Made by a program: the position numbers and the translations under genes
IMG/VR virus record: IMGVR_UViG_3300042534_000372
Span: 1 to 56,714 of that record
Strand: one strand, 5' to 3'
Origin: a virus
DNA length: 56,714 nucleotides
In this document: positions 15,916 to 56,714 of the stretch, piece after piece
Position numbering within the stretch: position 1 is the first letter of the stretch
Layout of the letters: every line of letters begins with the position of its first letter
Notes under the pieces: generated by a model
The model's input: only the letters and a program-made list of their open reading frames with translations
The model's database searches: none
Told to the model about the DNA's origin: nothing

Positions 15916-15918
15916 AAT

Positions 15919-16188: not shown

Positions 16189-16198
16189 GATTTATTTA

Positions 16199-16498
16199 TT
16201 AATGTTTAACATCCTGATCTTTATAATAAGCCTCTTTAAGCTCTTGTTTCTTCTCGTTGAATATATCATACTGTTCTTGCCTTGCGTGTTCTTCTGGCGT
16301 ACCTAAAAGTATGTTATCTGGATTTAAACGATATGCAGGATAAGCACCTTTCGAAAGCACGTGTAAAAATTGGAAGTGCCATTTAGGATGATTAATGTGG
16401 TAAAGTTGATTGCCTGACAACTCAGATTTATAACCGTTGGTCTCGCCTCTTGTTTCCCAAATAAATAAAAATAATTGTTTTTGAGTTTTAAACTTCAT
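16199..16498 (-). CDS. HNH/NinG-like nuclease candidate
   Basis: 99 residues. The segment NHPKWHFQFLHVLSKGAYP followed by YRLNPDNILLGTPEEHARQE resembles the core of small HNH-type recombination endonucleases: a His after a strand, Asn-Pro-Asp-Asn and a final His. No zinc cysteines are present. Overlaps the HNH/AP2-like gene by 11 bases. It could equally be a structural homologue without activity. Confidence 0.5.
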   Translation of the reverse strand: MKFKTQKQLFLFIWETRGETNGYKSELSGNQLYHINHPKWHFQFLHVLSKGAYPAYRLNPDNILLGTPEEHARQEQYDIFNEKKQELKEAYYKDQDVKH

Positions 16499-17195
16499 AA
16501 TTAATAAGCTTTAAATATGCCATGTTAGAAATATAACTCTTAAATTCTTCGGCTAATCTCAATATTTCATTTGTTTTTATTTCTTTGTACTTACGAATAG
16601 CATCAGTTTTATTTTCAAAATTACCAACGTACAGCCTGTCACTGTCATACGTTACCCTTATGGAATATTTATTATATTTAGATGAGTATCTATACCCAAA
16701 AGACTTCCTTAATACTGTATTTATTTTTGAGGGTAAAAAGCAACACGTTTCTGGAGAATATTTAGTACCATCACCAATCAGATCCTTATCTAATTCGAAT
16801 CCATTGATATAATTATCGTAATACCAATTTGCAAAATTTTGATAATTCAACCACCTCATACATACACAAACATTACTATATGTAGAATTATTAGATCTAC
16901 TTCCATAACACCTATCTAGCATGCTATTCCAAGTTGTATAAGCCTTTTCCTTAATACCACAACTCATTGATCTATGCTTCCCAATGCCAATATATCCAAT
17001 TCCATATTTAAATGGCCTCATAACATCCTTAACCCTTCCGCTCTTTATTGAGCACATTGATACGCTTGATACTGTGCCAGTCATTGCGAATATTATGTCT
17101 ATGTCATGGTAGGATCTATATTTAATTATCATAAATTCACCATAGTTTTTTGATTCAAAAACCATTCCGTCATACTCCATCTTTTTATTTCTCAT
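16488..17195 (-). CDS. HNH/AP2-like homing-endonuclease family protein
   Basis: 235 residues. AYTTWNSMLDRCYGSR near 85-100, then VCMRWLNYQNFANWYYDNY and the signature GFELDKDLIGDG-x-YSPETCCFLP are the hallmarks of a phage family that combines an HNH-like fold with an AP2-type DNA-binding domain; the AP2-like part is near 170-220 (YNKYSIRVTYDSDRLYVGNF). Such genes are usually mobile and free-standing. It has its own upstream TATCTTTA box. The SSB-recombination operon reads through around it, consistent with insertion. Confidence 0.72.
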   Translation of the reverse strand: MRNKKMEYDGMVFESKNYGEFMIIKYRSYHDIDIIFAMTGTVSSVSMCSIKSGRVKDVMRPFKYGIGYIGIGKHRSMSCGIKEKAYTTWNSMLDRCYGSRSNNSTYSNVCVCMRWLNYQNFANWYYDNYINGFELDKDLIGDGTKYSPETCCFLPSKINTVLRKSFGYRYSSKYNKYSIRVTYDSDRLYVGNFENKTDAIRKYKEIKTNEILRLAEEFKSYISNMAYLKLINYEV

Positions 17196-17269
17196 CTTTT
17201 TACTTTAAAGATACGAATAATAAGTAAAATCATAATCAAGTATTAAACATTTCTTTTTGTGTTTTGAAT

Positions 17270-17344
17270 TTATGCATGGCAATTACATTTAGGACAGCTT
17301 AAATAAAGCCTCGCATCATATTCATGCCCACAATTATTACACAC
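17270..17344 (-). CDS. Possible small zinc ribbon in the +1 frame of the preceding gene
   Basis: From a GTG at 17344 the frame reads VCNNCGHEYDARLYLSCPKC and four more residues, a classic CxxC-N-CxxC zinc ribbon. It begins inside the last codons of the gene ending at 17337, and no ATG is available. Either it uses GTG, or it is joined to the upstream protein by a +1 frameshift. Confidence 0.4.
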   Translation of the reverse strand: MCNNCGHEYDARLYLSCPKCNCHA

Positions 17345-17735
17345 TTCCCAAATCTCGTGATTTCTTAAATGCTTTGAACGACTCCTTAATGTCTTCTGTT
17401 GTTGGTAGCTCATATTCTATCGGTTTATTTTTTGGTGTAAAATGTAACTTCTGAAATGCAGTTAAAGGTTTTGCGTGATTGTGTAATGGTCTTTGATCCC
17501 AATCAGACATATCGGTATGGTTCCGGTTGCGTTCTCTTATTACGTGATCTAATCCGAACTTTTTAATCTTATTCCTTTCGACTGCGTTGAGGTATGCCTT
17601 TAATCTTCTTTCTAGATCTAATCTATATGGCAATGCTTCCGGCTTTCGCTCTTCTTCTCTTTCGATCTCAGGAGACTCTTGCACCCCCTGTTCTCTCATA
17701 TATAAAAAATCTTCTCTATTGCTTTGCATTGTCAA
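17337..17735 (-). CDS. Hypothetical charged protein of the recombination operon
   Basis: 132 residues, very rich in Arg, Lys and Glu (EIEREEERKPEALPYRLDLE) with a His/Asn-rich middle (RERNRNHTDMSDWDQRPLHN). It overlaps the ERF gene by 20 bases and so is probably translated with it. Likely a DNA-associated accessory factor, but this is guesswork from charge and neighbours. Confidence 0.6.
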   Translation of the reverse strand: MTMQSNREDFLYMREQGVQESPEIEREEERKPEALPYRLDLERRLKAYLNAVERNKIKKFGLDHVIRERNRNHTDMSDWDQRPLHNHAKPLTAFQKLHFTPKNKPIEYELPTTEDIKESFKAFKKSRDLGSV

Positions 17736-18381
17736 GCTCCTTAGTAATAAGTTCTTTATTCTTTTTACTCCACTTATATTTAAGTAGCGATTCGATAACG
17801 TATTGTTTTTTTGTGGGAATAGCCTTGATCATAGCGGTAACCTGTTCTTCCGAAACCCAATCCAACGAATCGCCAAATCCAAATTTGTAATCTTTAGGTG
17901 CTTGCGGTGTTTTAATATCGTCAGAATGAGTACTATCTGCGTCATCAATCTTGCCTACTGGAGTAAGGAAAGTATAAAGTAAACAGTTTTTAAGTGCATA
18001 TGTTGTAGCCTTACCAGCTCCTTTGTCTTGCGGGTCAATTCCGTGACCATAGCCAGCAAGCTCTATACTTTCCCCGCTTTCGTGTAGTAATATGTATTTA
18101 GTCTTAACCTTTGTGAAAACCGACTGTTTTGTTTTAAAATCTTTTGGTGTAGATTTACTGTATGGATCAACCTCTTCCCATCGATCTATTTGTGTTTCTT
18201 CTTCGATTCCAATAGGCAGAATGCAAAGTCCATTCTGTTCTAATGCATCGTTAAACACATCCGCAACATCCTTGTATTTAGTTCCGTCATAAGCCGAATT
18301 ACCAGTTCCGACACGGCTGTTTTTTTCCATTCCTTTAACAATCTTCATTACTGAAATAATTGCTTTTGCTATATTTTTCAT
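17716..18381 (-). CDS. erf: ERF-family single-strand annealing recombinase
   Basis: 221 residues. The diagnostic block is GYGHGIDPQDKGAGKATTYA (about 111-130) followed by ALKNCLLYTF, preceded by strands TKVKTKYILLH and ESGESIELAG, the ERF superfamily core. It anneals complementary ssDNA during phage recombination, probably on DNA coated by the SSB-like protein at 15559. The C-terminal 60 residues are a Lys-rich helical extension. Neighbours (NinB-like, SSB-like, HNH) form a recombination module. Confidence 0.85.
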   Translation of the reverse strand: MKNIAKAIISVMKIVKGMEKNSRVGTGNSAYDGTKYKDVADVFNDALEQNGLCILPIGIEEETQIDRWEEVDPYSKSTPKDFKTKQSVFTKVKTKYILLHESGESIELAGYGHGIDPQDKGAGKATTYALKNCLLYTFLTPVGKIDDADSTHSDDIKTPQAPKDYKFGFGDSLDWVSEEQVTAMIKAIPTKKQYVIESLLKYKWSKKNKELITKELDNAKQ

Positions 18382-18391: not shown

Positions 18392-18796
18392 TTAATTATA
18401 AGTGAAAATAAAATCTTCGTACCCCTGCATTTGTGGCGATGGTAAATAAATACTTTGCTCTTCTGCTACGAATAATCTAATCTTTTCTAAATAGTCCGTA
18501 AATTCTTTCGTGTCGTTATCTGGAGTGCTTTTAATCCTTAATTGCTTAACTCCAAATATTTCAACTTCTTCAATTCCTAGAAACTTTTCAGCAAAATATT
18601 TATGAAGATCGTTTTTATCGTTTCCAGTTTCATCTTGTATGCATGTAAGCCACATCCAATATAGAGAATTTTGTTTTACTGATCTTTTATTTTTGTGTTC
18701 GGTAAGATCAATTTTAGCTTTCTTTTCGATAAGCATTTTGCCTCGTAATCGAAAACGCTCAACGTCTAACGGTTTATTTAGGTCTAATTTCATCAT
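18392..18796 (-). CDS. NinB-like recombination protein
   Basis: 134 residues from the ATG at 18796, chosen because it overlaps the stop of the membrane peptide gene (GGATGATGAA). Motifs LRGKMLIEKKAKIDL, then KRSVKQNSLYWMWLTCIQDE, with the Arg...Gln-Asn...Trp spacing of NinB/Orf-type recombination mediators, and a later DLHKYFAEKFLG. It probably helps load the annealase or resolve intermediates. A frame extending to 18883 is possible but would overlap the upstream peptide. Confidence 0.6.
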   Translation of the reverse strand: MMKLDLNKPLDVERFRLRGKMLIEKKAKIDLTEHKNKRSVKQNSLYWMWLTCIQDETGNDKNDLHKYFAEKFLGIEEVEIFGVKQLRIKSTPDNDTKEFTDYLEKIRLFVAEEQSIYLPSPQMQGYEDFIFTYN

Positions 18797-20248: not shown

Positions 20249-20437
20249 TTATTTTTTGCCACCGCACTTACAATTTTTCAAATTGTTTAGGAATTGTCTT
20301 AGTGGCTCTTCCCAATGCTCAGCAAGTTTTTGAGAACCATTCACTGCCTTTACAAGTGTTGTATCAGGCATTTTCAATTGTCGCTCTATACCTCTAAGGC
20401 TTAGCGAGTGTTTATTTTTTCTTAACCAGTTAATCAT
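20249..20437 (-). CDS. Small regulator, paralogue family A
   Basis: 62 residues: INWLRKNKHSLSLRGIERQL, KMPDTTLVKAVNGSQKLAEH, W-x-EPLRQFLNNLK. It aligns along its whole length with the proteins at 48980 and 53945 (shared NK...IE..L.M.D..L.KAVN..Q.L...W..PL..FL..LK). The MPDTTLVKAVN stretch looks like an HTH recognition helix. Its operon has the same promoter region as the paralogue at 53945, which suggests autoregulation. A CKCGGKK tail is unique to this copy. Confidence 0.65.
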   Translation of the reverse strand: MINWLRKNKHSLSLRGIERQLKMPDTTLVKAVNGSQKLAEHWEEPLRQFLNNLKNCKCGGKK

Positions 20438-22062: not shown

Positions 22063-22944
22063 CTATTTATGTCTGTTCATCCAATCTTGCACGTACCACA
22101 ATTGCCCACAACCTCCACCAATATCATCCTGTCCAACAGGGTCGAAAACTCTAACATTATATCCACACTCTAAAAAACTAGCTGAAATTTCGTTAATTCT
22201 GTCAAGTTCTTTATATCCTTTATCTTTCATGTTTTCATCAGCAGAGCAAATAACACTGAATGTTAGGTTGAAAACAGCAGGGCTAAACAGGTCTTTTAGG
22301 CGGTTCATTTCATCATCGCTTTGGTTGTGCTCTCCAATGCAGTAATTAATGTAAACAGGTCGCTTGGTTAGCTTATTCCACTCAATGCCAGTATCACGCA
22401 TCTCACGCAATGTAAGCTTGTTTTTAAATGGTATTAAAGCATCTCTTTTTATTTCGATTGCCTCGTGTACACTAAATTGCAATCCTACCTTGTCAATGTC
22501 GTTACTTACTTCAAATAATCTTTCAAATGCTTTGGGTTTTTTAGCTGCCATTGTACTAAGTAACAGTTCTGCATTTGGGTAAAGGTTATTTAAGTCTCTA
22601 ATTGCTTTTTCTACATTTTCAAAATTAAGCATCGGCTCACCCATACTCATAAACATTATTTGGAAGCGTTCACCAACAGCATTAATGTTTTCAATATTCA
22701 TGTCTCTTAAGCAATGTTTTACTTGGTCAACTATTTCACGACTCGTAAGGTTTCTAATAAACATCTTACCAGTTCCGCAAAACTTACAACCCACAGGACA
22801 TCCGCTTTGTACACTTACACACAATACTGTTCGTTTGTAAAAATCCTCGTATCTGTAAAGCACAGCTTCTGCAACTGCATTTTCAAAATCAAATACATAC
22901 TTCCAAACATTGTTATCTGAACTATCAAATCTTTTCGTTTCCAT
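22063..22944 (-). CDS. RlmN/Cfr-like radical SAM methyltransferase
   Basis: 293 residues. VLCVSVQSGCPVGCKFCGTG carries the CxxxCxxC iron-sulfur motif (C49, C53, C56) and the upstream Cys42 that corresponds to RlmN C118. RNLTSREIVDQV follows, as in RlmN. Near the C-terminus, VGQDDIGGGCGQLW holds Cys279, the equivalent of the methyl-carrying C355. All catalytic residues of the RlmN/Cfr mechanism are thus present. These enzymes methylate A2503 of 23S rRNA (and some tRNAs). It is shorter than cellular RlmN (about 350-390), lacking the N-terminal accessory domain. It sits among accessory genes with junction elements on both sides, so it was probably acquired as a cassette. Confidence 0.82.
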   Translation of the reverse strand: METKRFDSSDNNVWKYVFDFENAVAEAVLYRYEDFYKRTVLCVSVQSGCPVGCKFCGTGKMFIRNLTSREIVDQVKHCLRDMNIENINAVGERFQIMFMSMGEPMLNFENVEKAIRDLNNLYPNAELLLSTMAAKKPKAFERLFEVSNDIDKVGLQFSVHEAIEIKRDALIPFKNKLTLREMRDTGIEWNKLTKRPVYINYCIGEHNQSDDEMNRLKDLFSPAVFNLTFSVICSADENMKDKGYKELDRINEISASFLECGYNVRVFDPVGQDDIGGGCGQLWYVQDWMNRHK

Positions 22945-33750: not shown

Positions 33751-34173
33751 TTAATTTGGTTTTGGAACTGTGAATAAAAAAGGATTATCTCCAATTACCA
33801 AAACTGGAAGGTCGATTGTTAATATCTCAACCTCTATATCATACGGATCTGCCTTAACTGCAATACTTACGATGGCCTGAAATCCGTAATCTGATAAGAT
33901 ATTCCATGCTAATATCTTGCCGTTATTTATATTAAAATCACTAAATCCGTTATAATTTCTAACTATTGCCGTGAAATTAATATCAGTAAAGTAAGGCTTA
34001 TTAAGTGTGAATATAATTGTGTATGTAGCATGTGTAGAATCTACCCTAACTATATCAGCAACACTTATACTTACATTTACAGCTTTTACTTGATTATCCC
34101 CTAGAAACATCGCATTCTGAGCTTGACTAAACAAGCTCAGAAATACAAGTATTATAAAAATTAATCTTTTCAT
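33751..34173 (-). CDS. Secreted beta-rich protein in the fibre operon
   Basis: 140 residues with a Sec signal peptide (MKRLIFIILVFLSLFSQAQ, cleavage after AQA/Q). The mature part is beta-rich (VNVSISVADIVRVDS, THATYTIIFTLNK, FQAIVSIAVKAD) like an Ig-type or adhesin domain. It follows the long fibre gene by one base. An exported protein inside a tail operon is unexpected; see findings. Confidence 0.65.
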   Translation of the reverse strand: MKRLIFIILVFLSLFSQAQNAMFLGDNQVKAVNVSISVADIVRVDSTHATYTIIFTLNKPYFTDINFTAIVRNYNGFSDFNINNGKILAWNILSDYGFQAIVSIAVKADPYDIEVEILTIDLPVLVIGDNPFLFTVPKPN

Positions 34174-37100
34174 TTAGTTGTAATTTAATCCGTATGTAAC
34201 ATTTAAATTAACTCCATCATACCACCAAGAGATAATATCTACAGAATTGGTAGTGCCTGTTAACGTTACTATACCAGCACCTCCATTTATAACTTTTGGT
34301 GTAGGTGACAGTGTTAATGTTCTTCCTCCTGTTACATCTTGTTGCACTCTAATATTACCACTCATTCCATCAATTAGATTAGTTAATGTTGCGGTGGTAT
34401 TACCCGTAAGCGTTATTTTAGCATTTACAGAGGTAGAGCAGTCGTAAGTTGGTGTTGTTCCTGAAAGTGTCTGTGTTGCTTTTTTGAATACGTTAGTTGC
34501 TGTTACTGTACCACTCATAACAGCATTACCTGTAACGTCTATACCTGACGAATTAATTTTAAACAGATCAATAAAAGTACTAGAGGTTGTCATTTGAGAG
34601 AACACATATGAGTCGCTAGTAGCAAAGCTTGTAAATGTATTAGTGAAATTAACCTCTGCATTCCCATTTGACCTATTCCAACTTATAGCCAAGCCTGTAT
34701 CTACTGACGGCAATGTTGTAGTGTTACCGTTGGCATACATAAAACCACTAGCAGTAACATTACCACCAGTATAATTACCACTAGTATCTATACGAGTAGT
34801 TCCGTTGGTTGAAATAGTAGAAGCATTCCAAGGTACTGTACCTAGATTAGAATTACCTGAGTGGTAAACAACTTTCTGAGTCAATCCAATGATCGGAGAT
34901 CCTTCAGCGGTTGCTTGTTCAGCTGCAATCCCTAAAATTAACCCATCAGGTACAAGTTTAACATATGATCTATTACTAGTAATAGGAGTACTACTTACAT
35001 ATCCGCTTGAGTTCTCGTTATGCTTAATTCCATAACCAATAAAAGGGTACGATGTACCACGCTCAGATCCAAAAGTTACAATATTTCCAGACGTATATTT
35101 ACCTAATAGAAAATTAGTTCCAGATGTAGAATTATTAGTTCCAAATGTTGTTGTTGGAAACGTATTATTAATATTCTTTAAAGCAACATTACTACTTAAA
35201 TTTCCATCTGCTAAAGTTCCTGTTGAGTTTGCTAATGCTAAGTAATAAGAACCATGTTGAGAATCTAATAAGTCAGCATTTAGATTAGTATTTAATGTTG
35301 TGCTTGTTGTGGCGTATGGCTGAGTTCCTGTTGCTACATTTGATATAAAATTAGAAGCTGTTACTGTACCACTCACAACAGCATTACCTGTTACGTCTAT
35401 TCCTCCACTAGCTTTAACTTTTAATACATCATCATTACCCCAAAATCCTATTCCAACAGTAGCTAATGAAAGATTACTATTGTAATTATATCGAACAACA
35501 CCAGCTTCATTAAGAATCTCCCTTTTACCAAAAATACCAAAAGACACATTAGCGCCTGATCCTACATTAGGCTGTTGTATTCTAAGTCTATTTTTTGTAT
35601 TGTCACTAATTAAGTTGATTTGATTACTAAAGTTACCACTACCACCAGTATAATTCCCCGAAGCATCTATGCGAGTAACTCCTGCTGTTTGTATTCCTGT
35701 TGTGGCGTTAAATACTGTTCCATTAACTTGCCCCGTAAATGTTGCACCTGTCAATAAAGCGTATAGTCCTAGATTTGGTTTATTTGTAAAATTATTATAG
35801 TCCAAATAATAACTACCAAGCTGACTATTTAATAATTGGGCATTTAGATTAGTATTTAATGTTGTGCTAGTTGTTGCGTATGGCTGAGTTCCTGTTGCTA
35901 CATTTGATATAAAATTAGAAGCTGTTACACTAGCACTGAAACTTCCACTATTGGCATTTGTCAGATCTCTGGCAGAATTAAAAATACCAAGTCCACCAAC
36001 TGAATAAGCATAAGCGTCTACATTTCCTGTATTTGTATTAAATTTTATAGGAAGTCCTGACACTCCACCATACTCTCTAATTGTTAATGTTGATGCGGAA
36101 GTACCTATTGCTTCAACAAATTGACCTGCTCCAATCGGATTCCAAACAGACCTACCACCATCTAATAATATAAATTCACTAGCAGTAATACTATTTGTAA
36201 ATGCATTAGCAATATCAAGGCGAGGAATATTAGTTATAGTTGTTGCTACACCCCCTAAAGTTGGCGTTATTGTTATCGTGTTGTTTAATTTAGTATTGCT
36301 TAATCCTTGAATTTCGTTCGTAGTACTGTTGTCGTTATCCGCAACGCTGAATGTAGTATTTACACCTGTTCCACCTGTGCCTATTGTAACATCTACACCA
36401 ACCTTACTAGATGTTGATGTAATGTTGTAATTTCCAGTCGTTGGGGATTGTCCGTTTATGGTTCTTGCTATCTCTGCATATATTACAGCGTCTTCTGTTG
36501 GATTAACTATTACTCCAAGCCCAGCTGAACCAGTTTTCACAGAAGGAGTATCGCTAAGATCATCAAACGAACTTGCGCCTACACCTCCTGTTCCACCCCC
36601 AGAAATATTTGTTTTTGTCCAGTCGATATAATCCACTAGCACCCCAGTTGTCGGATCTGTGCTTTGTCTTGTTCTTGACTGTACGGCATTACCATAATTA
36701 GTTCTTGTTTCAAAAATGACCGTTGCTACTGGTGCTAGTTCTGAAATTGGAAACTGACTAAATAACAAATCCTGAATTTCAGTTAGTGCCCCAGTTCTAG
36801 CCCCTGTTAATGTTGTATAGTCAGCCTGCCCCATTACCGTTCCAGTCTTATCGCCCAAAGTGTTTGATACAAATAGGTGATATAAAACAAAATCGCCGTT
36901 CGTAACCTCTGTTTGTTGCCATGTTCCAGCTACGTCCTCATTCCATGCAGCGCGACCTGTCCCAGTTGTTAAAATTGGGAATCCTGGTGAATCTTGCGAT
37001 CTCCATTCTGTTGTACCTTCTCTATAAAATACCGTATAACCAGTCGTGCTCAACACAGATGGGATTGATGTTATAATATCTTGATTTCTTATTACTCCAG

Positions 37101-38322
37101 AGCCATGCCCGAATTGAGCATCAGCCGCATCATTTCCAGTTCCTCCAGTTTGTATGTCAACTATTCCTAACCCCTCTAATACAACACATTTGTGCAAGTC
37201 CCAGAATGTAGACCATGTATTACCATTCATATCGAATGTATGTCGCATGTCGTTTGCGAACACAGTTGTATTATTTAAAGCATCCCAGTACATCCTAGAA
37301 GCTCCTGATTTTGAAGAATAAATATCGCGAACCTGTGATTCTGACTGATTGCTTGCTGTTGTCAACACACCTTTATCAAAATATACATCTACAGTACCTT
37401 CTATATCTGGCCATATAACGGATGGATTATCAAAGGTGTATTTAATTCCATCTTCGTATGTGTATCCTGATCCTATTATCTCAAATGTCCTAGTACCATC
37501 AATTGGTGAAAGTGTAGTTGAACCAATAATATCACTAGACCATCCTCTGGGGCTTATTACTTCTTTAGTATAACTTTCTACCAACGGATTTACATATATC
37601 TCCCCATCTGTTATGCCTAATTTCTTAACAACTCCTATGTATATATTAAAATCACCACCTGTTGCTTGTTCGTCTGTAATAAATCCATCATTACCAAGGT
37701 ATATATTATCACCAACAGCTACCCCAACATATAACGCCGAAACATTACCTTGAATTAATCCAAATCTTGTAACATTACCAGTTCCACCAGATCCTATGTC
37801 CTCAGTTGTTACGCCTATAATTCTACTCTTGTCAAAACTTGATTTGTCTGCCAGTTGAATGCTTAATCTATCAGATATTGAACCGTCAACATATACTACT
37901 TTTAAATTACTAATCAATGAAGCTGTGTTGTTGATTACTAATGGATTAAGAAGCATCCTACCTATAAGTATGGCATTTATTCCATCAGGAGTATATACCA
38001 GAGATTGAAATATAGAATCTAAATACAACTTACCCTTTTCGAATGATAGATTAGAAATGTTTGTATTAAACATTATAGAATCGAATACCATCCCAGCAGA
38101 TAAAGCATTTGCATTGAAATAATCTAAATTTAAAGCATCTTTCCCAGCTGTTGGATCTTGAACATTTACAACCTTATTCCCATTCATATCTAGCGAAAAT
38201 GTCGTACCGTCTTCACCAATTGATGCGCTTTTGTAAATTCTCAATTCATCACCCGCTACATTCTGACCCTGTGCAAATATTGAACTAAAAGCCAATATTA
38301 ATAATAAAACTATCTTTCTCAT
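34174..38322 (-). CDS. Tail fibre-like protein with N-terminal signal peptide
   Basis: 1382 residues. It begins with a Sec signal peptide (MRKIVLLLILAFSSIFAQGQ). Near residues 45-70 is NKVVNVQDPTAGKDALNLDY, the fibre motif that anchors to the tail in many phages (V-x-D-P-x-x-x-x-D-A-x-N). The rest is Gly/Ser/Thr/Asn-rich beta-helix or beta-prism repeats, including two near-identical blocks (DNA 35277-35364 and 35841-35928). The C-terminal 95 residues (ATQTLSGTTPTYDCSTSVNA, NLIDGMSGNIRVQ, ISWWYDG) are a tip domain also found on the membrane protein at 54977. Likely receptor-binding fibre; export is unusual. Confidence 0.75.
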   Translation of the reverse strand: MRKIVLLLILAFSSIFAQGQNVAGDELRIYKSASIGEDGTTFSLDMNGNKVVNVQDPTAGKDALNLDYFNANALSAGMVFDSIMFNTNISNLSFEKGKLYLDSIFQSLVYTPDGINAILIGRMLLNPLVINNTASLISNLKVVYVDGSISDRLSIQLADKSSFDKSRIIGVTTEDIGSGGTGNVTRFGLIQGNVSALYVGVAVGDNIYLGNDGFITDEQATGGDFNIYIGVVKKLGITDGEIYVNPLVESYTKEVISPRGWSSDIIGSTTLSPIDGTRTFEIIGSGYTYEDGIKYTFDNPSVIWPDIEGTVDVYFDKGVLTTASNQSESQVRDIYSSKSGASRMYWDALNNTTVFANDMRHTFDMNGNTWSTFWDLHKCVVLEGLGIVDIQTGGTGNDAADAQFGHGSGVIRNQDIITSIPSVLSTTGYTVFYREGTTEWRSQDSPGFPILTTGTGRAAWNEDVAGTWQQTEVTNGDFVLYHLFVSNTLGDKTGTVMGQADYTTLTGARTGALTEIQDLLFSQFPISELAPVATVIFETRTNYGNAVQSRTRQSTDPTTGVLVDYIDWTKTNISGGGTGGVGASSFDDLSDTPSVKTGSAGLGVIVNPTEDAVIYAEIARTINGQSPTTGNYNITSTSSKVGVDVTIGTGGTGVNTTFSVADNDNSTTNEIQGLSNTKLNNTITITPTLGGVATTITNIPRLDIANAFTNSITASEFILLDGGRSVWNPIGAGQFVEAIGTSASTLTIREYGGVSGLPIKFNTNTGNVDAYAYSVGGLGIFNSARDLTNANSGSFSASVTASNFISNVATGTQPYATTSTTLNTNLNAQLLNSQLGSYYLDYNNFTNKPNLGLYALLTGATFTGQVNGTVFNATTGIQTAGVTRIDASGNYTGGSGNFSNQINLISDNTKNRLRIQQPNVGSGANVSFGIFGKREILNEAGVVRYNYNSNLSLATVGIGFWGNDDVLKVKASGGIDVTGNAVVSGTVTASNFISNVATGTQPYATTSTTLNTNLNADLLDSQHGSYYLALANSTGTLADGNLSSNVALKNINNTFPTTTFGTNNSTSGTNFLLGKYTSGNIVTFGSERGTSYPFIGYGIKHNENSSGYVSSTPITSNRSYVKLVPDGLILGIAAEQATAEGSPIIGLTQKVVYHSGNSNLGTVPWNASTISTNGTTRIDTSGNYTGGNVTASGFMYANGNTTTLPSVDTGLAISWNRSNGNAEVNFTNTFTSFATSDSYVFSQMTTSSTFIDLFKINSSGIDVTGNAVMSGTVTATNVFKKATQTLSGTTPTYDCSTSVNAKITLTGNTTATLTNLIDGMSGNIRVQQDVTGGRTLTLSPTPKVINGGAGIVTLTGTTNSVDIISWWYDGVNLNVTYGLNYN

Positions 38323-39549: not shown

Positions 39550-40128
39550 TCAGTATCCTATTGCTTGAACAAACATTGTTATATCTCCACTATATGAATC
39601 ATCCCTATTGTACGTAAATCCTGTTTTTGTTTTACTGTACGGCTCGTTCGTGTAGCTAGCTCCAGTAACTACTAGATTAACACATGCTGTAGGGAATGGA
39701 TAAGGAAAGTTTAACTGCTGGTCAGTATCTACATTGGATATAAATTTAAACCATTGCATTCTCATTCCGTTTGATAATTGAGTCCACCCCTGCTCTAATG
39801 TGTTATTCACAATACCAATGCCATCATCAACATATTTTTTTGTTGCAGGATGATAATCTAGTGTTGGTGTGTAAATCGCCAAATTCGTTTTAGAGATATA
39901 ATTTAAAAACAATGTGTTTATCTGAGCTTGCGTGTAAACATCTAAATTAGTAGTTGTAAAATCTAAAAGTTGTTGCATTGTCATATTTTCAGACAACGAA
40001 CCCACTTGTCCTATTGCGATTCTATCCGTAAGCTCAGGGTTTGCATTTAAATCAAGCCCAAATAGTTTCCTTTGAGCGTTAGCCGAAAATGAAACGGCTA
40101 CTAATAATAAAATAATTATCTTTTTCAT
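39550..40128 (-). CDS. Secreted fibre protein with gp53-like C-terminal domain
   Basis: 192 residues from the ATG at 40128; upstream codons would overlap the previous gene. Signal peptide MKKIIILLLVAVSFSANAQ. Then HPATKKYVDDGI, a fibre-trunk motif, and GMRMQWFKFISNVDTDQQLN, a typical start of the gp53-like fibre C-terminal domain, ending GDITMFVQAIGY. Likely a short receptor-binding fibre. Export signal is surprising for a virion protein. Confidence 0.7.
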   Translation of the reverse strand: MKKIIILLLVAVSFSANAQRKLFGLDLNANPELTDRIAIGQVGSLSENMTMQQLLDFTTTNLDVYTQAQINTLFLNYISKTNLAIYTPTLDYHPATKKYVDDGIGIVNNTLEQGWTQLSNGMRMQWFKFISNVDTDQQLNFPYPFPTACVNLVVTGASYTNEPYSKTKTGFTYNRDDSYSGDITMFVQAIGY

Positions 40129-40129
40129 A

Positions 40130-42910
40130 CTAATCAATTGTAAATTGTTCGTTATCATCATCTGTAAAAATCTCTAAATCATCATCTATTGCATAAGTCT
40201 CTTCTGCCACGGTTATATATTTTGAAACTGGTATTATCTCAATAGTTGCTTTCGATTGAAACCCGCCTGTATTTAAGTCATTAATCCATCCATATTTATA
40301 AGCTTGATAAACATTTTCTCTGTATCCGATAAGGCTATAAACCTTAGGCTTACCGTCTTCGTGATATTGATTTAAAGTATTTTTTTGAATCGAAGTTATT
40401 AATGCATCAAAAGTAATTAATTCAACTCCATACAAAGGTGTATCTAAATCGTTAACTAACACATTAGTACTTTCTGAAACCTCTTTAGATTCTCCAGTAA
40501 CCTTGCTTACTAAGGTACTTATTTTATCGCTATTTGAAAAAACGTATTCAGTGTTTAATTTATACTCTAAAGGTGCGCGGAGTTTAAATCCATGTCTTAC
40601 AAGTGATCTAGCAGGAGATAGTCTAATATTATAAGAATCGTCTGCGTTTACAATTCCTCTTATGTAATCAAATCCCTCGTTTGTTCTTGCCTTGTATTTA
40701 GCTGAATCGCTTACGTAGATATCATCTAATATTAATTGATTAGTTCCTAATTGATTCGCTAAAAATGCGGTATTAAACGATACTGTTATGTAGTTGATAT
40801 TTTCCAATGCTTCATTTGCTCCTACTGAAAAATTAAACATCGATTGAAAATTGTTTAATTTAATCCCATTTACTGAAGGTGCTGCGTATGCATTAGATCC
40901 CTCAATCCAACTACCTAATGAATTTAAAGACCATTTAGAATTATCGTTTAACGTTGCAGTTATCTGGAATGTTGGCGTGAACACTAACCCCGTAACGGTG
41001 CTTATGACAGCGTAAGAAAAAGATAAAATTGGCTCTTTTATTGAAGTTATATTTTGAGAAATCATACTCTGACCGTTGGAGTATCCGAGCACAAATCTAT
41101 TGCTGCCTATCAAGTTTTCAACTGTCACAACGTTGGAGATAGCCCAGTCGGTAGTGCCCTGTTCTGCATCACCGTTTGATACCGCATTACCTGTTGTGTT
41201 CTCAACAAGATCAATCATGTAGTTAATGTCGTCATACTTTGAGTCGGTAGTTGGCTTTTCTTTTTTAGTTATTCTTCTAGCTTCATTTATTGATGTGTTA
41301 GATGCAGATATCTTACTAATGACTATTTCTTTTTTATCTGTTGATGTTATTGCATTAGACCATCCAGATTTTGTATTGTAATCATAAAATCCATCTACCT
41401 TTTCATCTGATTCAAATTTAGAATACCCGAACTCAACCTGATTAGGAATGAAATCTTTGTTGTATTCTGATTTTAATTCCGTTGCATTATCAATCAGCAT
41501 TACCACCCTTGTATCAAAAAAGTATTGTAACTCCTCGATAAAGAATACTTTATTTCCATTAAGCAGTTTAACGCCCATCCCGATAGGCGTAATCGTATTT
41601 AAAGCCTCGAAAGCATCTTTGAGCGATATAGATAAAGGCGCAATTGGTTCCGAATACCCAACGCCGTTAGTCATTGGAAACCCTCGTATTAACGCCCCAT
41701 TCGTAAATGCTAATAAAGATAGGTATCCGTTATATGTGTACTTTAATGGCTCTGAATCTTTACGCCCTAAAATCTCACTGTAGAATGGTATGTTTTCAGA
41801 AGTTATAACTTGCCCTATCCTATTCATCATTTCAGATGCAAGCATTCCTTTTACGTTTTTCTGTGGCGCGAAACCGCCCTGTGTTCGTATCGAAAAATCT
41901 ATTACAGCCCCCCTGCTTACGCTTGCGCCAAATGTATAATTATCTTGGAAAACTCCAATCTGTAAATAATTACCATTTTGCACTGTTATTAATTCAGATA
42001 ACTCGGATACTACACTGTATGAGTTAAGAAAAAAATCAGCACTAAGAAATGTTACTGTCCCTGTTATATCTATTGTTAATATAATATTATCATTTGTATC
42101 AATAACGTACAAAAACACTTTCACATCACTAGTGCTTTGTATGAACGCCGAAATGTTAGCTACAAGACTTATCGTTCCGTTTATATCTACAATTACATCT
42201 ATACCCGTATTGTTTGCGTAAAATGCACCAGATATACTTTTAAATACATTTGAATTTGATGTAACATTATCGTCAGCACCGCTAATTTTAGTCAATACAG
42301 GTATTAATGGGTCTTTATCTAATGTAGACTCATACGATTGATTCTTGTCTGACTCCATACTATTATTAAGGTAATCTATCCGATTAGGTAATGTGATATC
42401 ATTCCCCTCATTCGCATAGCCAGGAAGTTCTTTCCCATCTAAAGATTTGTAAATTTCATCTTGTGATTTCTTTGTGACAATAACAGGAATAGATTCTCTA
42501 CTTATCACCTTTCTTTCAAAGCTTGAATCGTCAATAGGCACTGTGTATTTTAATTCGTCAACATCTTTGTCTATTAGTTGAACATTACCCTGAAAAACCT
42601 TTTCGTTAATAATTGTTGTGGGGTTATACTCCCATACTTCTAATATAATTTCAGCCTCGAATCCTTGCTCTAATTCTGCCTTTTCCAAGAATGCTTTACC
42701 TTCTTTAACGAATCCTAATTTAGACAATGAATACTTTCTGAATATTCCTGAATACGTACCAGATCTAGAATAGCTATACCCTGCATCACTCCAACCATCT
42801 GGCGCGTGTGTTAATCTTACCCTACCCAGTGATGGATTAGATAAGAAAAACGTTAAGTATGTAGTTGTATTCGTTGGCCTATACCAAGTCCTAGTTGTGT
42901 TATTGCTCAT
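40130..42910 (-). CDS. Tail tip / baseplate hub protein
   Basis: 926 residues, directly after the tape measure (its start shares a base with the tape-measure stop), the position of distal-tail and tail-tip proteins. N-terminal region has immunoglobulin-like strands (AFLEKAELEQGFEAEIILEV); the centre has a lectin-like beta-sandwich (about 590-720); the C-terminus is acidic (DDDLEIFTDDDNEQFTID). Expected to connect the tail tube to fibres. No enzymatic motif seen. Confidence 0.65.
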   Translation of the reverse strand: MSNNTTRTWYRPTNTTTYLTFFLSNPSLGRVRLTHAPDGWSDAGYSYSRSGTYSGIFRKYSLSKLGFVKEGKAFLEKAELEQGFEAEIILEVWEYNPTTIINEKVFQGNVQLIDKDVDELKYTVPIDDSSFERKVISRESIPVIVTKKSQDEIYKSLDGKELPGYANEGNDITLPNRIDYLNNSMESDKNQSYESTLDKDPLIPVLTKISGADDNVTSNSNVFKSISGAFYANNTGIDVIVDINGTISLVANISAFIQSTSDVKVFLYVIDTNDNIILTIDITGTVTFLSADFFLNSYSVVSELSELITVQNGNYLQIGVFQDNYTFGASVSRGAVIDFSIRTQGGFAPQKNVKGMLASEMMNRIGQVITSENIPFYSEILGRKDSEPLKYTYNGYLSLLAFTNGALIRGFPMTNGVGYSEPIAPLSISLKDAFEALNTITPIGMGVKLLNGNKVFFIEELQYFFDTRVVMLIDNATELKSEYNKDFIPNQVEFGYSKFESDEKVDGFYDYNTKSGWSNAITSTDKKEIVISKISASNTSINEARRITKKEKPTTDSKYDDINYMIDLVENTTGNAVSNGDAEQGTTDWAISNVVTVENLIGSNRFVLGYSNGQSMISQNITSIKEPILSFSYAVISTVTGLVFTPTFQITATLNDNSKWSLNSLGSWIEGSNAYAAPSVNGIKLNNFQSMFNFSVGANEALENINYITVSFNTAFLANQLGTNQLILDDIYVSDSAKYKARTNEGFDYIRGIVNADDSYNIRLSPARSLVRHGFKLRAPLEYKLNTEYVFSNSDKISTLVSKVTGESKEVSESTNVLVNDLDTPLYGVELITFDALITSIQKNTLNQYHEDGKPKVYSLIGYRENVYQAYKYGWINDLNTGGFQSKATIEIIPVSKYITVAEETYAIDDDLEIFTDDDNEQFTID

Positions 42911-48979: not shown

Positions 48980-49156
48980 ATGAGCGAATCAATTAAATGG
49001 TTACAGAAAAATAAACGCTTTATAAAGATTAGCGTAATTGAAATTGAGCTTGGAATGGCAGATACTATCTTAAGTAAGGCCGTGAATGAAAAACAGGCAT
49101 TATCTAAACATTGGGATAAGCCTTTGAATGAGTTTTTAACAGAATTAAAGAAATAG
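48980..49156 (+). CDS. Small regulator, paralogue family A
   Basis: 58 residues: MSESIKWLQKNKRFIKISVI, IELGMADTILSKAVNEKQAL, HWDKPLNEFLTELKK. Aligns end to end with 20249 and 53945. Very likely a DNA-binding regulator of one domain. Paired here with an XRE gene, unlike its two relatives. Confidence 0.66.
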   Translation: MSESIKWLQKNKRFIKISVIEIELGMADTILSKAVNEKQALSKHWDKPLNEFLTELKK

Positions 49157-51459: not shown

Positions 51460-51526
51460 TTGTTAACGGATTACGGCTATGAAGCGTTGCCGATTAAAAC
51501 GCTATAACTTTCAAATTTAAACTAAG

Positions 51527-51679
51527 ATGAGTAAAGAGAACAAAAATTCGGATAAGCAACAAAACGGCAATGATTTTATAGCCGATGTTACCAAACGTTA
51601 TTACTTAACCAAGGATAGACAGGGAAATTACCAAATATTAAATGAGTTGGCTTATGAAAAGAAGTTGATTTACGGATAA
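51527..51679 (+). CDS. Hypothetical small protein
   Basis: 50 residues, MSKENKNSDKQQNGNDFIAD followed by a Tyr/Lys-rich helix. Flanked on both sides by junction sequences (TTGTTAACGGATTACGG before it, GGTAATGAGCATTGGTAAG after it). Unknown. Confidence 0.5.
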   Translation: MSKENKNSDKQQNGNDFIADVTKRYYLTKDRQGNYQILNELAYEKKLIYG

Positions 51680-52167: not shown

Positions 52168-52401
52168 ATGAGCAAAAATAACAAAAAAGATACTGAGCAA
52201 TGCACTTTACATAGTGTTATAGAGAGTGCCTTGCCATGCCCTTTTTGTGGTGGTACTAACTTAGCTTTTATTAGTGATGCTGATGGAGATAGAGACGTTG
52301 AATTTATAGTTTGCATGGCTGATAACTGCCTTGCAGATGGTAGAATAGGTAAAAATAAAGAGGATGCTTTAAATAAGTGGAACAAAAGGCATTCTCTATA
52401 A
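52168..52401 (+). CDS. Lar-like restriction-alleviation family protein
   Basis: 77 residues. SALPCPFCGGTNLAFISDAD, a second CxxxxC (VCMADNCLADG), then KNKEDALNKWNKRH. The PCPFCG-x-x, C...C, AI/AL-x-x-WN-x-R pattern is the Lar family, small zinc proteins found in phages and linked to evasion of type I restriction. The first 20 residues belong to the linker-like part of the modular family (TLHSVIES). Confidence 0.75.
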   Translation: MSKNNKKDTEQCTLHSVIESALPCPFCGGTNLAFISDADGDRDVEFIVCMADNCLADGRIGKNKEDALNKWNKRHSL

Positions 52402-52447
52402 CGTTTATGGTATGGATAGTAAATTAACGATTAAATAAAACTGAATT

Positions 52448-52759
52448 ATGAAATTAGCAATAGAGATATTAAACAGAGAGATAGCACAGCGAAAGTTAGC
52501 AAACAAACACGAACATTTAAGAAAGGATGTGTGTACACAAGAATTGAAAGAGCTTGAAAGTGTAGTTAATTTATTAGCTATACCAATTGTTAGCGTTTCG
52601 TTGTTTGATACATTACAAGACTTAATAGAAGTGTACGAAGAAAGAGAAACCAAAGCAAGCAAGATGGGAAATTGGAGTGAGGCCTTCCAAAACGAAATAA
52701 GGGTAGGTGTATTACAGCATTTAGCACAATTGCATAAACATAAAAACAATGAACGCTAA
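52448..52759 (+). CDS. Modular small protein with AIPIVSV linker
   Basis: 103 residues, helical: MKLAIEILNREIAQRKLANK, a linker-like LLAIPIVSVSLFD at 42-54, then TLQDLIEVYEERETKASKMG and a His/Lys-rich end. The central DNA (CTATACCAATTGTTAGCG) is like the linkers at 52858 and 48580. Unknown. Confidence 0.6.
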   Translation: MKLAIEILNREIAQRKLANKHEHLRKDVCTQELKELESVVNLLAIPIVSVSLFDTLQDLIEVYEERETKASKMGNWSEAFQNEIRVGVLQHLAQLHKHKNNER

Positions 52760-52819
52760 CGGTCGCAGGTATGTTTAGTGCCTGATTTAGAAGTAAAAAC
52801 AATCAAAATATAAATAACG

Positions 52820-53035
52820 ATGAAAAAAGAACAAAACTTGAATACAGCAAAACAACAGGCATTAAATATACCTGTTGTTAGCGGTCGTTTTTTTGAAGTG
52901 TTTGACAAAGAAAATGATTATAATTTAGCTGTTGATTTAAAAAACTATGTTAATGAGCATATATTTAAACACTTAGTTAATAATTATGATTTAAAAATAA
53001 CTTATCGTGAATGGTTGTCGCAAAATGACCGCTAA
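52820..53035 (+). CDS. Modular small protein with NIPVVSGRF linker
   Basis: 71 residues. A short Lys/Gln N-terminus (MKKEQNLNTAKQQA), linker LNIPVVSGRFFE at 15-26, C-terminal LKNYVNEHIFKHLVNNYDLK ending EWLSQNDR. Compare 23043. Unknown. Confidence 0.62.
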   Translation: MKKEQNLNTAKQQALNIPVVSGRFFEVFDKENDYNLAVDLKNYVNEHIFKHLVNNYDLKITYREWLSQNDR

Positions 53036-53102: not shown

Positions 53103-53429
53103 ATGAAACGTAGAAATTTAATTAGCAAAACGGCAATTTGCCTATATTTAGTGTTAGCAGTATGTTATTCTTCTTTTTCACAAGAGGCTGACACTGTTAA
53201 AATAGATACTACAGTTAATAAAATATGTTTGGAGCGTGGGCATGTATCTGTCGGGGTAATTATGAAAACAGCAATGTACTGCACCCCGTATAGTATAGAT
53301 ACTGACAGCACAACAGTAATGGTTTACCCCGCTTGCAATTACGAAAGTTTTACATGTAAAAGATGCGGTAAGTATGTTAGCCAATTAGAAAAGGAGCGGA
53401 GGGTTGTAATTTGGCGTAAAGAAGAATAA
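53103..53429 (+). CDS. Secreted cysteine-containing protein
   Basis: 108 residues with a signal peptide (hydrophobic ICLYLVLAVCYSSFSQ). The mature part has CNYESFTCKRCGKYVSQLEK, i.e. a CxxC zinc or redox pair, and other Cys (KICLE, MYCTP). Probably exported to the periplasm or outer membrane. Function unknown; an exported accessory protein is unusual for a phage. Confidence 0.65.
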   Translation: MKRRNLISKTAICLYLVLAVCYSSFSQEADTVKIDTTVNKICLERGHVSVGVIMKTAMYCTPYSIDTDSTTVMVYPACNYESFTCKRCGKYVSQLEKERRVVIWRKEE

Positions 53430-53612: not shown

Positions 53613-53939
53613 ATGAAAACTTTTATAAAATTAATAACATTAATAGTAGTATTATCATCATCAACACTAGCTAGCGCAAATCACGATAATCAGACAGAGA
53701 TAAATCATTCAAAATACGACACTATTGTTTGTGATTTCTTATCGTCGCAATCTCCCAATATTGTCATTAACCGTATTGATTTTAACTTTTTCTTATCAGC
53801 ACTAGAAAGAGTCGGGTTTAATTGCGCGATAGATTCGGATAGATATAATATGACCAGGGTAATTAATGGTGCAACTATAAAAATTCAATGGAGTGTTACT
53901 GGTTACAATACGACTTTTACTAAAATGGAAATTAAATAA
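53613..53939 (+). CDS. Secreted small protein
   Basis: 108 residues; signal peptide MKTFIKLITLIVVLSSSTLA (cleavage near ASA). Mature part has two Cys (VCDFLSSQ, FNCAIDSD) that could form a disulfide, and beta-like ends (NGATIKIQWSVTG). First gene behind the duplicated promoter; the family A regulator follows after 5 bases. Confidence 0.65.
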   Translation: MKTFIKLITLIVVLSSSTLASANHDNQTEINHSKYDTIVCDFLSSQSPNIVINRIDFNFFLSALERVGFNCAIDSDRYNMTRVINGATIKIQWSVTGYNTTFTKMEIK

Positions 53940-53944: not shown

Positions 53945-54124
53945 ATGTCAAAAAACTTAATGAATTGGATAAAGCAGAATAAACGCTTTGTTAAAATACG
54001 TGCTATTGAGCAAGAATTAAAGATGCCTGACAGTACATTGATAAAAGCTGTGAACGAAGTACAGAATTTACCTAAGAAGTGGATTAAACCGCTGAATGAA
54101 TTCCTAATTACTTTGAAAAAGTAA
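53945..54124 (+). CDS. Small regulator, paralogue family A
   Basis: 59 residues: MSKNLMNWIKQNKRFVKIRA, IEQELKMPDSTLIKAVNEVQ, KWIKPLNEFLITLKK. About half identical to 20249 along the whole length. The HTH-like MPDSTLIKAVN is the best conserved. It probably binds the duplicated promoter that drives it. Confidence 0.66.
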   Translation: MSKNLMNWIKQNKRFVKIRAIEQELKMPDSTLIKAVNEVQNLPKKWIKPLNEFLITLKK

Positions 54125-54292: not shown

Positions 54293-54484
54293 ATGAAACT
54301 AACAAAATTAGAAAAGGCATTAGTAGTATCAGGTTCTACTTCAATAATCGGAATAGTATGTACTGTGTTTGAATTACTCTCTATGCCATTCGGTTATGAA
54401 TTCAACTGGTATAGTGTTTGTATTTTAGGACTTGGAGTTATTGGAAGTGTGATATTTGGAAGGATTTACACAAATAAAAACTAA
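54293..54484 (+). CDS. Small two-helix membrane protein
   Basis: 63 residues: LVVSGSTSIIGIVCTVFELL and YSVCILGLGVIGSVIFGRI. No other feature. It precedes the secreted beta-barrel-like gene by 4 bases. Confidence 0.58.
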   Translation: MKLTKLEKALVVSGSTSIIGIVCTVFELLSMPFGYEFNWYSVCILGLGVIGSVIFGRIYTNKN

Positions 54485-54488: not shown

Positions 54489-54974
54489 ATGAAAAAACTA
54501 ATAATTTTAACCGCATTGTTATTATTAACTATTTGTGTTAAGTCTCAGATAACTGATAATACATTTCAAGCGTTAGAAGTAACATTCAGTAACGAAGATA
54601 AAGCACCTGGCTTTAACGCTTATTTATTCAATAAAGGATTTGGATTAGTTGCCGGATTCGAGACTGGCAATTATCGATTTGGAGATACTGCTAAAACGGA
54701 ACACGATAAATACAGATTAGGATTAGCGATCAACGCAACCGAAAAAGATTCATATTATTGCGGTGGTAGCTTAATCTTTTACGCTACTGCATGTTATAAC
54801 GAATACAAGGAAGTTTACGATAAGTTCGATCATATAAACGATGATTTGCCTACGTACACATGTGAATTAGGCGTTAAGTTCTTGTTTCCGAACAGTAGGG
54901 TATTTTCAGGCTTTCAATACGATATTATTCATAAGACTGGCGGGTTTTCAGTTGGGTTAATTATAAATAAATAG
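54489..54974 (+). CDS. Outer-membrane beta-barrel-like secreted protein
   Basis: 161 residues from the ATG at 54489, which gives a proper signal peptide MKKLIILTALLLLTICVKSQ; an ATG at 54456 would overlap the previous gene. The mature part alternates in strands (FNAYLFNKGFGLVAGFETGN, YRLGLAINATEKDSYYCGGS, ELGVKFLFPNSRVFSGFQYD, GGFSVGLIINK), ending in an aliphatic strand as outer-membrane barrels do. Size fits an 8-strand barrel. It may change the host surface; see findings. Confidence 0.66.
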   Translation: MKKLIILTALLLLTICVKSQITDNTFQALEVTFSNEDKAPGFNAYLFNKGFGLVAGFETGNYRFGDTAKTEHDKYRLGLAINATEKDSYYCGGSLIFYATACYNEYKEVYDKFDHINDDLPTYTCELGVKFLFPNSRVFSGFQYDIIHKTGGFSVGLIINK

Positions 54975-54976: not shown

Positions 54977-55399
54977 ATGGAAAAGATTGGGAATATAATA
55001 ATGTTATCGTGTATGCTAATATTAGCAGTAAGTATATCCTATGGTATATTCAAACTGTGTAGCGTTAAAGATAATGAATCGAAATATATCAATTCAGAAT
55101 TAGGTAGTAATGTTTGTGATGATGATTATGTAACGGTAATATATGACTGTTCGATATGTACCATTTCAAAAATAACTACAGATAAAGATACTGTTATAAG
55201 ATTAGATAATTTAAAAGAAGGAATGTCTGGATACATCAATATAAATACACAATCAGGATGCAAGTTGAGAGTGATAGTGTGCCCTGATGTAGTAAGCGAC
55301 ACAAGCAATATAAATCCTATCATTATTGATGGTTTCGGAGTTGTATCATGGTGTTGCATTAATAGTGTTTTATATAAAATATATGACAAATATGAATAG
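54977..55399 (+). CDS. Membrane-anchored protein carrying the phage fibre-tip domain
   Basis: 140 residues. N-terminal helix (IIMLSCMLILAVSISYGIF) then a luminal domain (about 45-140). The domain has the order YDCS, KITTDKDTVIRLDNLKEGMS, GYININTQSGCKL, GVVSWCCINSVLYKIYD. It lines up with the last 95 residues of the fibre at 34174 (YDCS, NAKITLTGNTTATLTNLIDG, MSGNIRVQ, ISWWYDGVNLNVTYG). The extra cysteines suggest adaptation to the periplasm. No fibre trunk is attached. Its likely role (decoy or receptor masking) is a hypothesis. Confidence 0.66.
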   Translation: MEKIGNIIMLSCMLILAVSISYGIFKLCSVKDNESKYINSELGSNVCDDDYVTVIYDCSICTISKITTDKDTVIRLDNLKEGMSGYININTQSGCKLRVIVCPDVVSDTSNINPIIIDGFGVVSWCCINSVLYKIYDKYE

Positions 55400-55604
55400 T
55401 GTTTTTGAGTTTGCATATACTGATTGTCATCATGATAGTGGCCCTGTGTGTGTTAGTATTCATAAAACAATAAAAGGCGCAGAGGTCGCGAGTCGTCTAC
55501 ATAAAGAAAACGAACGAAAGGAGTGTGAGGACGACGACATTAATTTTGATGAGTATTCCGAGTATGCATTATGGGTTATCACAGAAAGAGAAGTACTAGA
55601 ATAA
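55383..55604 (+). CDS. Hypothetical small acidic protein
   Basis: 73 residues from the ATG at 55383 (overlap of 17 bases with the previous gene; 55392 is possible). MTNMNSVFEFAYTDCHHDSG, then a Lys/Glu middle and an acidic C-terminus (DDDINFDEYSEYALWVITER). A common style of small phage protein; function unknown. Convergent with the following minus-strand gene. Confidence 0.55.
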   Translation: MTNMNSVFEFAYTDCHHDSGPVCVSIHKTIKGAEVASRLHKENERKECEDDDINFDEYSEYALWVITEREVLE

Positions 55605-56122: not shown

Positions 56123-56186
56123 AACACGTTTGTGTTAATTATTATTGCATTACTATTGGCTAGTGACACATTTGTGCTTATATTTG
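56123..56186. promoter_or_regulatory. Divergent control region with two operator-like sites and promoter of copy 2
   Basis: AACAC-GTTT-GTGTT (56123-56136) is a perfect inverted repeat, and about 40 bases on CACATTTGTG is a similar site. TATATTTG at 56179-56186 with TTG at 56156-56158 is the promoter of the second cassette. Copy 1 lacks these sites. Confidence 0.6.
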
Positions 56187-56225
56187 TAATAGACAATAAG
56201 GAAATAAACTTTAAAACTAAACAAG

Positions 56226-56465
56226 ATGAAAACTTCAACTTTAAAAAACAAATTAAACAAACTGAATATTGAATTTACAATTGATTCCAACTATCAAGTA
56301 ATTGATTTTACAATAAATAACAAAAGTTATTCAGGTAGTTTAAATAATGATGAAGATGAAGTTTTCGGTTTTTGCGCTATAACTGGTTATGATGATGCAA
56401 GCCAAGAAACAACTAGAAGATTCTTTGATAATTTTAATCAGGTTTTAAGACATTCAAATAAATAA
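56226..56465 (+). CDS. Cassette gene 1, second copy
   Basis: 79 residues, paralogue of 390-629. Substitutions cluster in residues 16-47 (for example DSNYQVIDF for DNEYQLIEF); the last 30 residues are identical. Intact reading frame, so both copies are under selection. Function unknown. Confidence 0.75.
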   Translation: MKTSTLKNKLNKLNIEFTIDSNYQVIDFTINNKSYSGSLNNDEDEVFGFCAITGYDDASQETTRRFFDNFNQVLRHSNK

Positions 56466-56466
56466 A

Positions 56467-56634
56467 ATGGATATTAAATTTAAAGGTCAAAAGCTCTCAA
56501 CTTTAGAATGGGTTGAGAGTGATTCCATACTACAAGGCAGGCATTGCGAAACCAAAAGAATTTTCTTGAAAACAAAAGAAAAGTTCCCGCAGTGGACTGA
56601 ATGTAAACCAGAAACGGTTATTCAAATTAAATAA
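56467..56634 (+). CDS. Cassette gene 2, second copy
   Basis: 55 residues with the same sequence as the gene at 631 or differing in very few positions; most base changes fall in third codon positions (for example AAACTC/AAGCTC, AACGAAA/AACAAAA). This pattern supports a real coding gene. Confidence 0.68.
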   Translation: MDIKFKGQKLSTLEWVESDSILQGRHCETKRIFLKTKEKFPQWTECKPETVIQIK

Positions 56635-56648
56635 TTAAAATCTATGTT

Positions 56649-56714
56649 ATGAAAAAATGCGAAGATTGTGGATGTGAAATTTATTCTTACATCAATAAAG
56701 ATGGTGAATGCAAG
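56649..56714 (+). CDS. Cassette gene 3, second copy, partial
   Basis: The first 22 codons of the cysteine-rich gene (MKKCEDCGCEIYSYINKDGE), identical to 813 onward, are cut by the window end. Same rejected early ATG followed by a stop. Confidence 0.65.
   Translation, partial: MKKCEDCGCEIYSYINKDGECK

What the first reader, a model, noticed from the sequence alone, without database searches (positions are those of the whole stretch)
54977..55399. Membrane-anchored copy of the phage's own fibre-tip domain
The luminal domain of this protein lines up with the C-terminal 95 residues of the fibre 34174-38322 (YDCS, KIT-L-TT, NL-x-x-GMSG-x-I, SWW/SWC). It is fused to a single transmembrane helix instead of a fibre trunk, and has added cysteines. 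A host-displayed copy of a receptor-binding tip could occupy the receptor from inside and prevent superinfection or adsorption of progeny to debris.
Basis: partly seen in the sequence, partly recalled or inferred. Interest (0 to 1): 0.75.

Follow-up and report, generated by a model that had tools for sequence, protein, structure and literature searches.

The report
Membrane-targeted relative of phage fibre cap
A bacterial virus, probably of flavobacteria, carries away from its tail genes a small protein that joins a membrane-inserting stretch to a strongly diverged relative of the module ending its own tail fibre; the resemblance is real, but that module looks like a common fibre cap rather than a proven receptor-binding tip, so a role in blocking other viruses remains a guess.

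Summary
Residues ~36-140 of the 140-aa protein at 54977-55399 are homologous to the last ~100 residues of the fibre at 34174-38322 (BLASTP 2e-6; no shuffle reaches the profile score; only two ORFs in the window match). Both model as the same beta-sandwich and retrieve the same solved structures: the XD1 fold of phage CBA120 TSP4 and T4 gp9/gp10, also in CpaA/StcE. The N-terminus is one strongly hydrophobic segment without a strict lipobox.

It is not a recent copy: it keeps 10 of 31 residues invariant among fibre caps and is as close to two other phages' caps as to its own. The domain looks like a conserved, interchangeable cap: it sits on unrelated trunks in other phages, and the sister phage G416 has an S74 chaperone domain at the end of its orthologous fibre. 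The fibre itself starts with a signal peptide. Flanking charges do not fix the topology, and an inner-membrane anchor would not reach a surface receptor. No equivalent was found elsewhere.

Best reading: a fibre-cap-derived, envelope-targeted accessory protein in a gene group apart from the tail genes. Superinfection exclusion is possible but unproven.

The parts
54977..55399 (+). P0001, 140 aa: the protein of the finding
   Evidence: ORF with ATG, 2 bases after the upstream gene and overlapping the next
54995..55051 (+). hydrophobic segment, residues 7-25 (IIMLSCMLILAVSISYGIF); membrane anchor or uncleaved signal, cleavage not excluded
   Evidence: mean hydropathy 2.36 over 19 residues; no strict lipobox; helix 2-29 in the model
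55082..55396 (+). XD1-type beta-sandwich, residues ~36-140, homologous to the fibre cap
34174..34482 (-). C-terminal cap of the fibre (last ~102 residues), the homologous domain
34174..38322 (-). tail fibre, 1382 aa, with N-terminal signal-peptide-like MRKIVLLLILAFSSIFAQGQ
   Evidence: ortholog with its own signal peptide in G416
54489..54974 (+). 161-aa protein with signal peptide, directly upstream of P0001; no family match
54293..54484 (+). 63-aa small membrane protein, first of the tight gene group
55383..55604 (+). 73-aa protein whose start overlaps the end of P0001; no family match
53103..53429 (+). 108-aa signal-peptide protein, Cys-rich (6.5%), upstream in the same strand group
53613..53939 (+). 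108-aa signal-peptide protein upstream in the same strand group

Best explanation
P0001 is a small accessory protein in which a hydrophobic membrane-targeting segment is joined to an XD1-type beta-sandwich of the kind that caps this phage's tail fibre, followed by strong divergence. Shown by computation: the homology, the shared predicted fold, the hydrophobic N-terminus, and the place in a tight group of + strand genes, several for exported or membrane proteins, apart from the - strand tail operon. Inferred: it is made in the infected cell rather than built into the virion; it sits in the inner membrane with the domain in the periplasm; and the domain, freed from fibre-cap duty, binds an envelope or phage partner (protein or glycan) there. 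The most likely benefit is a changed envelope of the infected cell that hinders a second phage, the same outcome as T5 Llp by a different protein; this last step is a guess.
For: Homology and shared fold; hydrophobic segment stronger than the signal peptides of neighbours; neighbours 53103, 53613, 54489 carry signal peptides and 54293 is a membrane protein; opposite strand from the structural genes; cysteine content far above the virion proteins (6.4% against 0-0.5%), as in the exported neighbour 53103; loss of 21 of 31 invariant cap residues argues that the cap duty is gone.
Against: No relative of the gene was found, so selection cannot be measured. Topology and cleavage are undecided. Model confidence is modest (mean pLDDT 63) and the alignment behind it contained the caps. 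No expression data.
Confidence: 0.4

Rival explanations
1. One reading: a membrane-held copy of the receptor-binding tip occupies the receptor and prevents superinfection or adsorption of progeny to debris.
For: Homology to the fibre end; phage proteins that block the phage's own receptor from the periplasmic side exist (T5 Llp, PMC9586334).
Against: The cap behaves as a conserved interchangeable module, not a specificity determinant; P0001 lacks most invariant cap residues; no lipobox for outer-membrane placement, and an inner-membrane anchor does not reach an extracellular binding site.
Confidence: 0.15
2. Minor virion or tail-assembly part: a short cap-like protein that joins the tail or helps fold or tether fibres through its XD1 domain; fibres of this phage group carry signal peptides, so an envelope tether for exported fibres is conceivable.
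For: XD1 domains occur in virion proteins; short stand-alone cap proteins lie among tail genes in other phages (MEP301 gp17, 131 aa); tail proteins with signal peptides.
Against: Those short proteins lack a hydrophobic N-terminus; P0001 lies on the other strand among accessory genes; related phages have no counterpart.
Confidence: 0.15
3. Captured fibre end in decay, or with a neutral role: a fragment placed behind a start and hydrophobic stretch by recombination and drifting since.
For: Very long branch and unusual composition; loss of 21 of 31 invariant residues; single occurrence.
Against: Intact ORF in tight spacing with its neighbours; the sandwich is still predicted with the same strand order; core hydrophobic pattern and NL..GMSG kept.
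Confidence: 0.2
4. The XD1 domain is used as a glycan-binding module in the envelope, as the same fold is in the secreted proteases CpaA and StcE.
For: CpaA and StcE domains are in the same structural list (Z 7.4 and 6.2), and the TSP4 paper calls them glycan-binding domains of the same fold.
Against: Fold likeness only; no sequence match and no binding site identified.
Confidence: 0.1

Closest known systems
XD1 domain of phage CBA120 TSP4 (PDB 7REJ, residues ~79-180) and T4 gp9/gp10
   Same: Same predicted fold, best structural matches of both P0001 (Z 9.1, rmsd 3.0, 93 aligned; gp9 Z 8.5, gp10 Z 8.9) and the fibre cap
   Different: Those are inside trimeric virion proteins; P0001 is a stand-alone domain behind a hydrophobic segment, with 7-12% sequence identity
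C-terminal cap of this phage's fibre (34174-34482) and of fibres in L012, L013
   Same: Homologous by sequence over the whole domain; same subclade
   Different: P0001 has no trunk, 10 of 31 invariant residues, many added cysteines, different strand and gene group
Pa223 capsid spike (9NY6) and Solidus gp83 tailspike (24QJ) C-terminal domains
   Same: Same fold, and C-terminal as in the fibre cap
   Different: Virion proteins; no membrane segment
CpaA (6O38) and StcE (4DNY) domains
   Same: Same fold in secreted bacterial proteins
   Different: Parts of proteases; no sequence relation shown; glycan binding untested here
T5 Llp / Cor superinfection-exclusion lipoproteins
   Same: Small phage-encoded envelope proteins; Llp acts from the periplasm and has a disulphide (PMC9586334)
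   Different: Lipoproteins; P0001 has no strict lipobox and another origin; exclusion not shown

Membership tests
Fibre C-terminal cap / XD1-type domain | Sequence homology to the cap family beyond chance | tested here: met
Fibre C-terminal cap / XD1-type domain | XD1-type beta-sandwich fold | tested here: met
   predicted models of both domains give the same set of solved structures, well above the following rows; modest confidence, prediction only
Fibre C-terminal cap / XD1-type domain | Invariant cap residues, including the PTPKVINGG loop | tested here: not met
   10 of 31 kept, loop lost: a diverged relative, not a functional cap by this measure
Fibre C-terminal cap / XD1-type domain | Trimeric assembly | not testable with these tools
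   no multimer prediction available
Receptor-binding tip | Binds a host receptor | not testable with these tools
   needs binding assay; conservation on unrelated trunks and exchange with S74 speak against specificity
Llp/Cor exclusion lipoproteins | Lipoprotein signal with lipobox | tested here: not met
   no [LVI][ASTVI][GAS]C in residues 1-45; only a relaxed MLSC at 9-12 inside the hydrophobic stretch
Llp/Cor exclusion lipoproteins | Blocks phage receptor or superinfection | not testable with these tools
   no assay; no family or PADLOC match

The most novel reading that the evidence does not exclude
A phage recycled the end module of its own tail fibre into a membrane-held envelope protein that protects the infected cell from further phage infection: an exclusion factor built from a virion fibre part.
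Probability: 0.12. Interest if true: 0.7.

Novelty: new variant of a known kind. Interest (0 to 1): 0.38.

Why it matters
If it acts in the envelope, it would show that fibre modules are raw material for phage accessory proteins, and would give a sequence-based way to look for candidate exclusion factors: short membrane-targeted ORFs that match the phage's own fibre. The same test on five related phages found no second case, so for now it is a single example.

Tried and rejected
Direct relatives of P0001: none in IMG/VR by peptide patterns, none in INPHARED by tblastn at E up to 1; a degenerate DNA pattern for the shared K-I-T...N-L..G-M-S-G motif found only the phage of L012. Cap relatives in bacterial genomes: none by pattern; a profile search of 395 Bacteroidota genomes gave one weak hit, in an unrelated-looking signal-peptide protein; an empty result there says little. 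A general habit of copying the fibre end: all-against-all within five relatives (G416, G417, G428, G430, G432) gave no other short ORF matching a fibre. Family libraries give nothing informative for P0001; its weak PHROG and Pfam matches lie in the hydrophobic segment. Classical lipoprotein: no strict lipobox. Spanin: considered because of size and anchor; no coiled coil or lipobox seen by eye, not tested further. A wider cap profile scored P0001 lower (12.9 bits): its kinship is with its own fibre's subclade rather than the family at large. Weak PDB sequence hits of the cap profile were ignored. Sigma-70-like promoter matches and Bacteroidota-type promoter patterns were not above noise or not placed so as to define the operon. 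Papers on signal peptides of tail fibres in Bacteroidota phages were searched for without a direct hit.

Full report
What was checked. The ORF at 54977-55399 (+) encodes 140 residues. Its similarity to the end of the fibre at 34174-38322 (-) is beyond chance: BLASTP E = 2e-6 for the pair, Smith-Waterman 85 against at most 58 in 5,000 shuffles, and 26.1 bits against at most 12.1 in 20,000 shuffles with a profile of fibre caps. In a six-frame scan of the window only the fibre and this ORF pass.

The domain. IMG/VR phages carry the cap at the very end of fibres of 617-1956 residues; more distant relatives in INPHARED and IMG/VR are again at or near the C-terminus, in proteins down to 131 residues. 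AlphaFold2 models of P0001 (mean pLDDT 63) and of the cap (78.5) show a similar order of strands. Against solved structures both give the same leading set: CBA120 TSP4 residues 79-180, T4 gp9 and gp10, Klebsiella phage KP1 baseplate proteins, Pa223 capsid spike, Solidus gp83, CpaA and StcE, with a drop to the next rows. The published relatives of the XD1 domain of TSP4 include T4 gp9, T4 gp10, CpaA and StcE; the paper describes XD1 modules as apparent spacers in TSP4, gp9 and gp10 and notes that the CpaA and StcE domains of this fold are glycan-binding (PMC8825819). The P0001 model is not wholly independent of the caps, because they were in its alignment; Z values of 8-9 alone would be middling, and it is the coherence of the list that carries weight.

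Is it a copy of the phage's own tip? P0001 scores 85, 84 and 80 against the caps of its own fibre, L012 and L013, and lower against all others. In a tree it joins these three (94/91) on a branch of 2.59 changes per site, flagged as long and of unusual composition, so the exact placement is unsure. It keeps 10 of the 31 residues invariant among seven caps and lacks the PTPKVINGG loop. It comes from the same subclade but is not a recent duplicate.

Is the cap a receptor-binding tip? The caps are 52-79% identical while the trunks mostly do not align. The closest relative of the phage found, G416 (terminase-like protein 75%, the 452-aa protein at 8951-10309 72%, capsid-like protein 69% identical), has a fibre orthologous over residues 1-726 (50%) that ends in an S74 endosialidase-chaperone domain. 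A module that is conserved across unrelated trunks and stands where a folding chaperone stands in the sister phage is better read as a cap or assembly module. Binding was not tested.

Membrane targeting. Residues 7-25 have a mean hydropathy of 2.36, above the signal peptides of neighbouring genes (1.66-2.05) and of the fibre (1.78). There is no strict lipobox. Signal peptidase sites after S19, S21 or G23 are not excluded. Flanking charges (one positive and one negative before, two positive just after) do not fix the topology, unlike the seven signal peptides compared, which have 2-3 positive and no negative charges in the first eight residues. The fibre itself starts with a signal peptide, so the contrast 'membrane helix instead of trunk' should read 'hydrophobic N-terminus in both, trunk missing in one'.

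Context. The gene lies in a tight + strand group: 54293-54484 (small membrane protein), 54489-54974 (signal peptide), 54977-55399, and 55383-55604, preceded by two more signal-peptide proteins at 53103 and 53613. The structural genes are on the - strand. Accessory DNA just upstream (51463-51590, 52398-52880) is 82-88% identical to Cellulophaga phages, which points to a flavobacterial host. The cassette was not found in five related phages.

How it most likely works. Shown by computation: homology, predicted fold, hydrophobic N-terminus, gene context. Inferred: production in the infected cell, anchoring in the inner membrane, periplasmic domain, binding of an envelope or phage partner. Superinfection exclusion is a natural benefit for such a protein, with T5 Llp as a precedent of outcome (PMC9586334), but nothing here tests it, and an inner-membrane protein could not occupy an extracellular receptor face directly. 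Decay of a captured fibre end is the main ordinary rival.

Verdict. Observation confirmed; interpretation partly supported; a new arrangement of a known fold, seen once.

Noticed in passing
window 34174-38322, 33751-34173, 39550-40161 (-); L012, L014, L015 fibres; L108:12161-12748 and 13967-18076; L110:13279-14970; L112:3129-7373; L115:945-3992; L118:13155-15611: Tail fibres and large tail-region proteins of this phage and of many relatives begin with Flavobacteriia-type signal peptides (e.g. MRKIVLLLILAFSSIFAQGQ; G416 ortholog MKKLALLFLLILPYFVQSQ). Why parts presumed to assemble in the cytoplasm carry export signals is unexplained; it may deserve its own study.
   Followed up: partly
window 335-878 and 56172-56714: Direct repeat of ~545 bp, 91.6% identical, near both ends: either an overlap of a circular genome with strain variation or a duplicated pair of genes.
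   Followed up: partly
window 22063-22944 (-): Radical SAM protein (RlmN-like by eye) with 78.5% DNA identity over 869 bp to a 462-kb uncultured phage, LR756500.
   Followed up: no
window 48980-49156 (+), 53945-54124 (+), 20249-20437 (-): Three paralogous ~60-aa proteins, 50-63% identical, in both orientations.
   Followed up: no
L108:18076-18420 and 18417-18770: Downstream of its fibre, sister phage G416 has two adjacent paralogous signal-peptide proteins (51% identical over the matched part), at the place of the window's signal-peptide protein 33751-34173.
   Followed up: no
L108:13967-18076 against window 34174-38322: Exchange of fibre ends between sister phages: same N-terminal half, S74 chaperone end in one and XD1 cap in the other.
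   Followed up: yes
window 53103-53429 (+): Exported 108-aa protein as cysteine-rich (6.5%) as P0001, ending in a CxxC-type motif; no family above cut-off.
   Followed up: no
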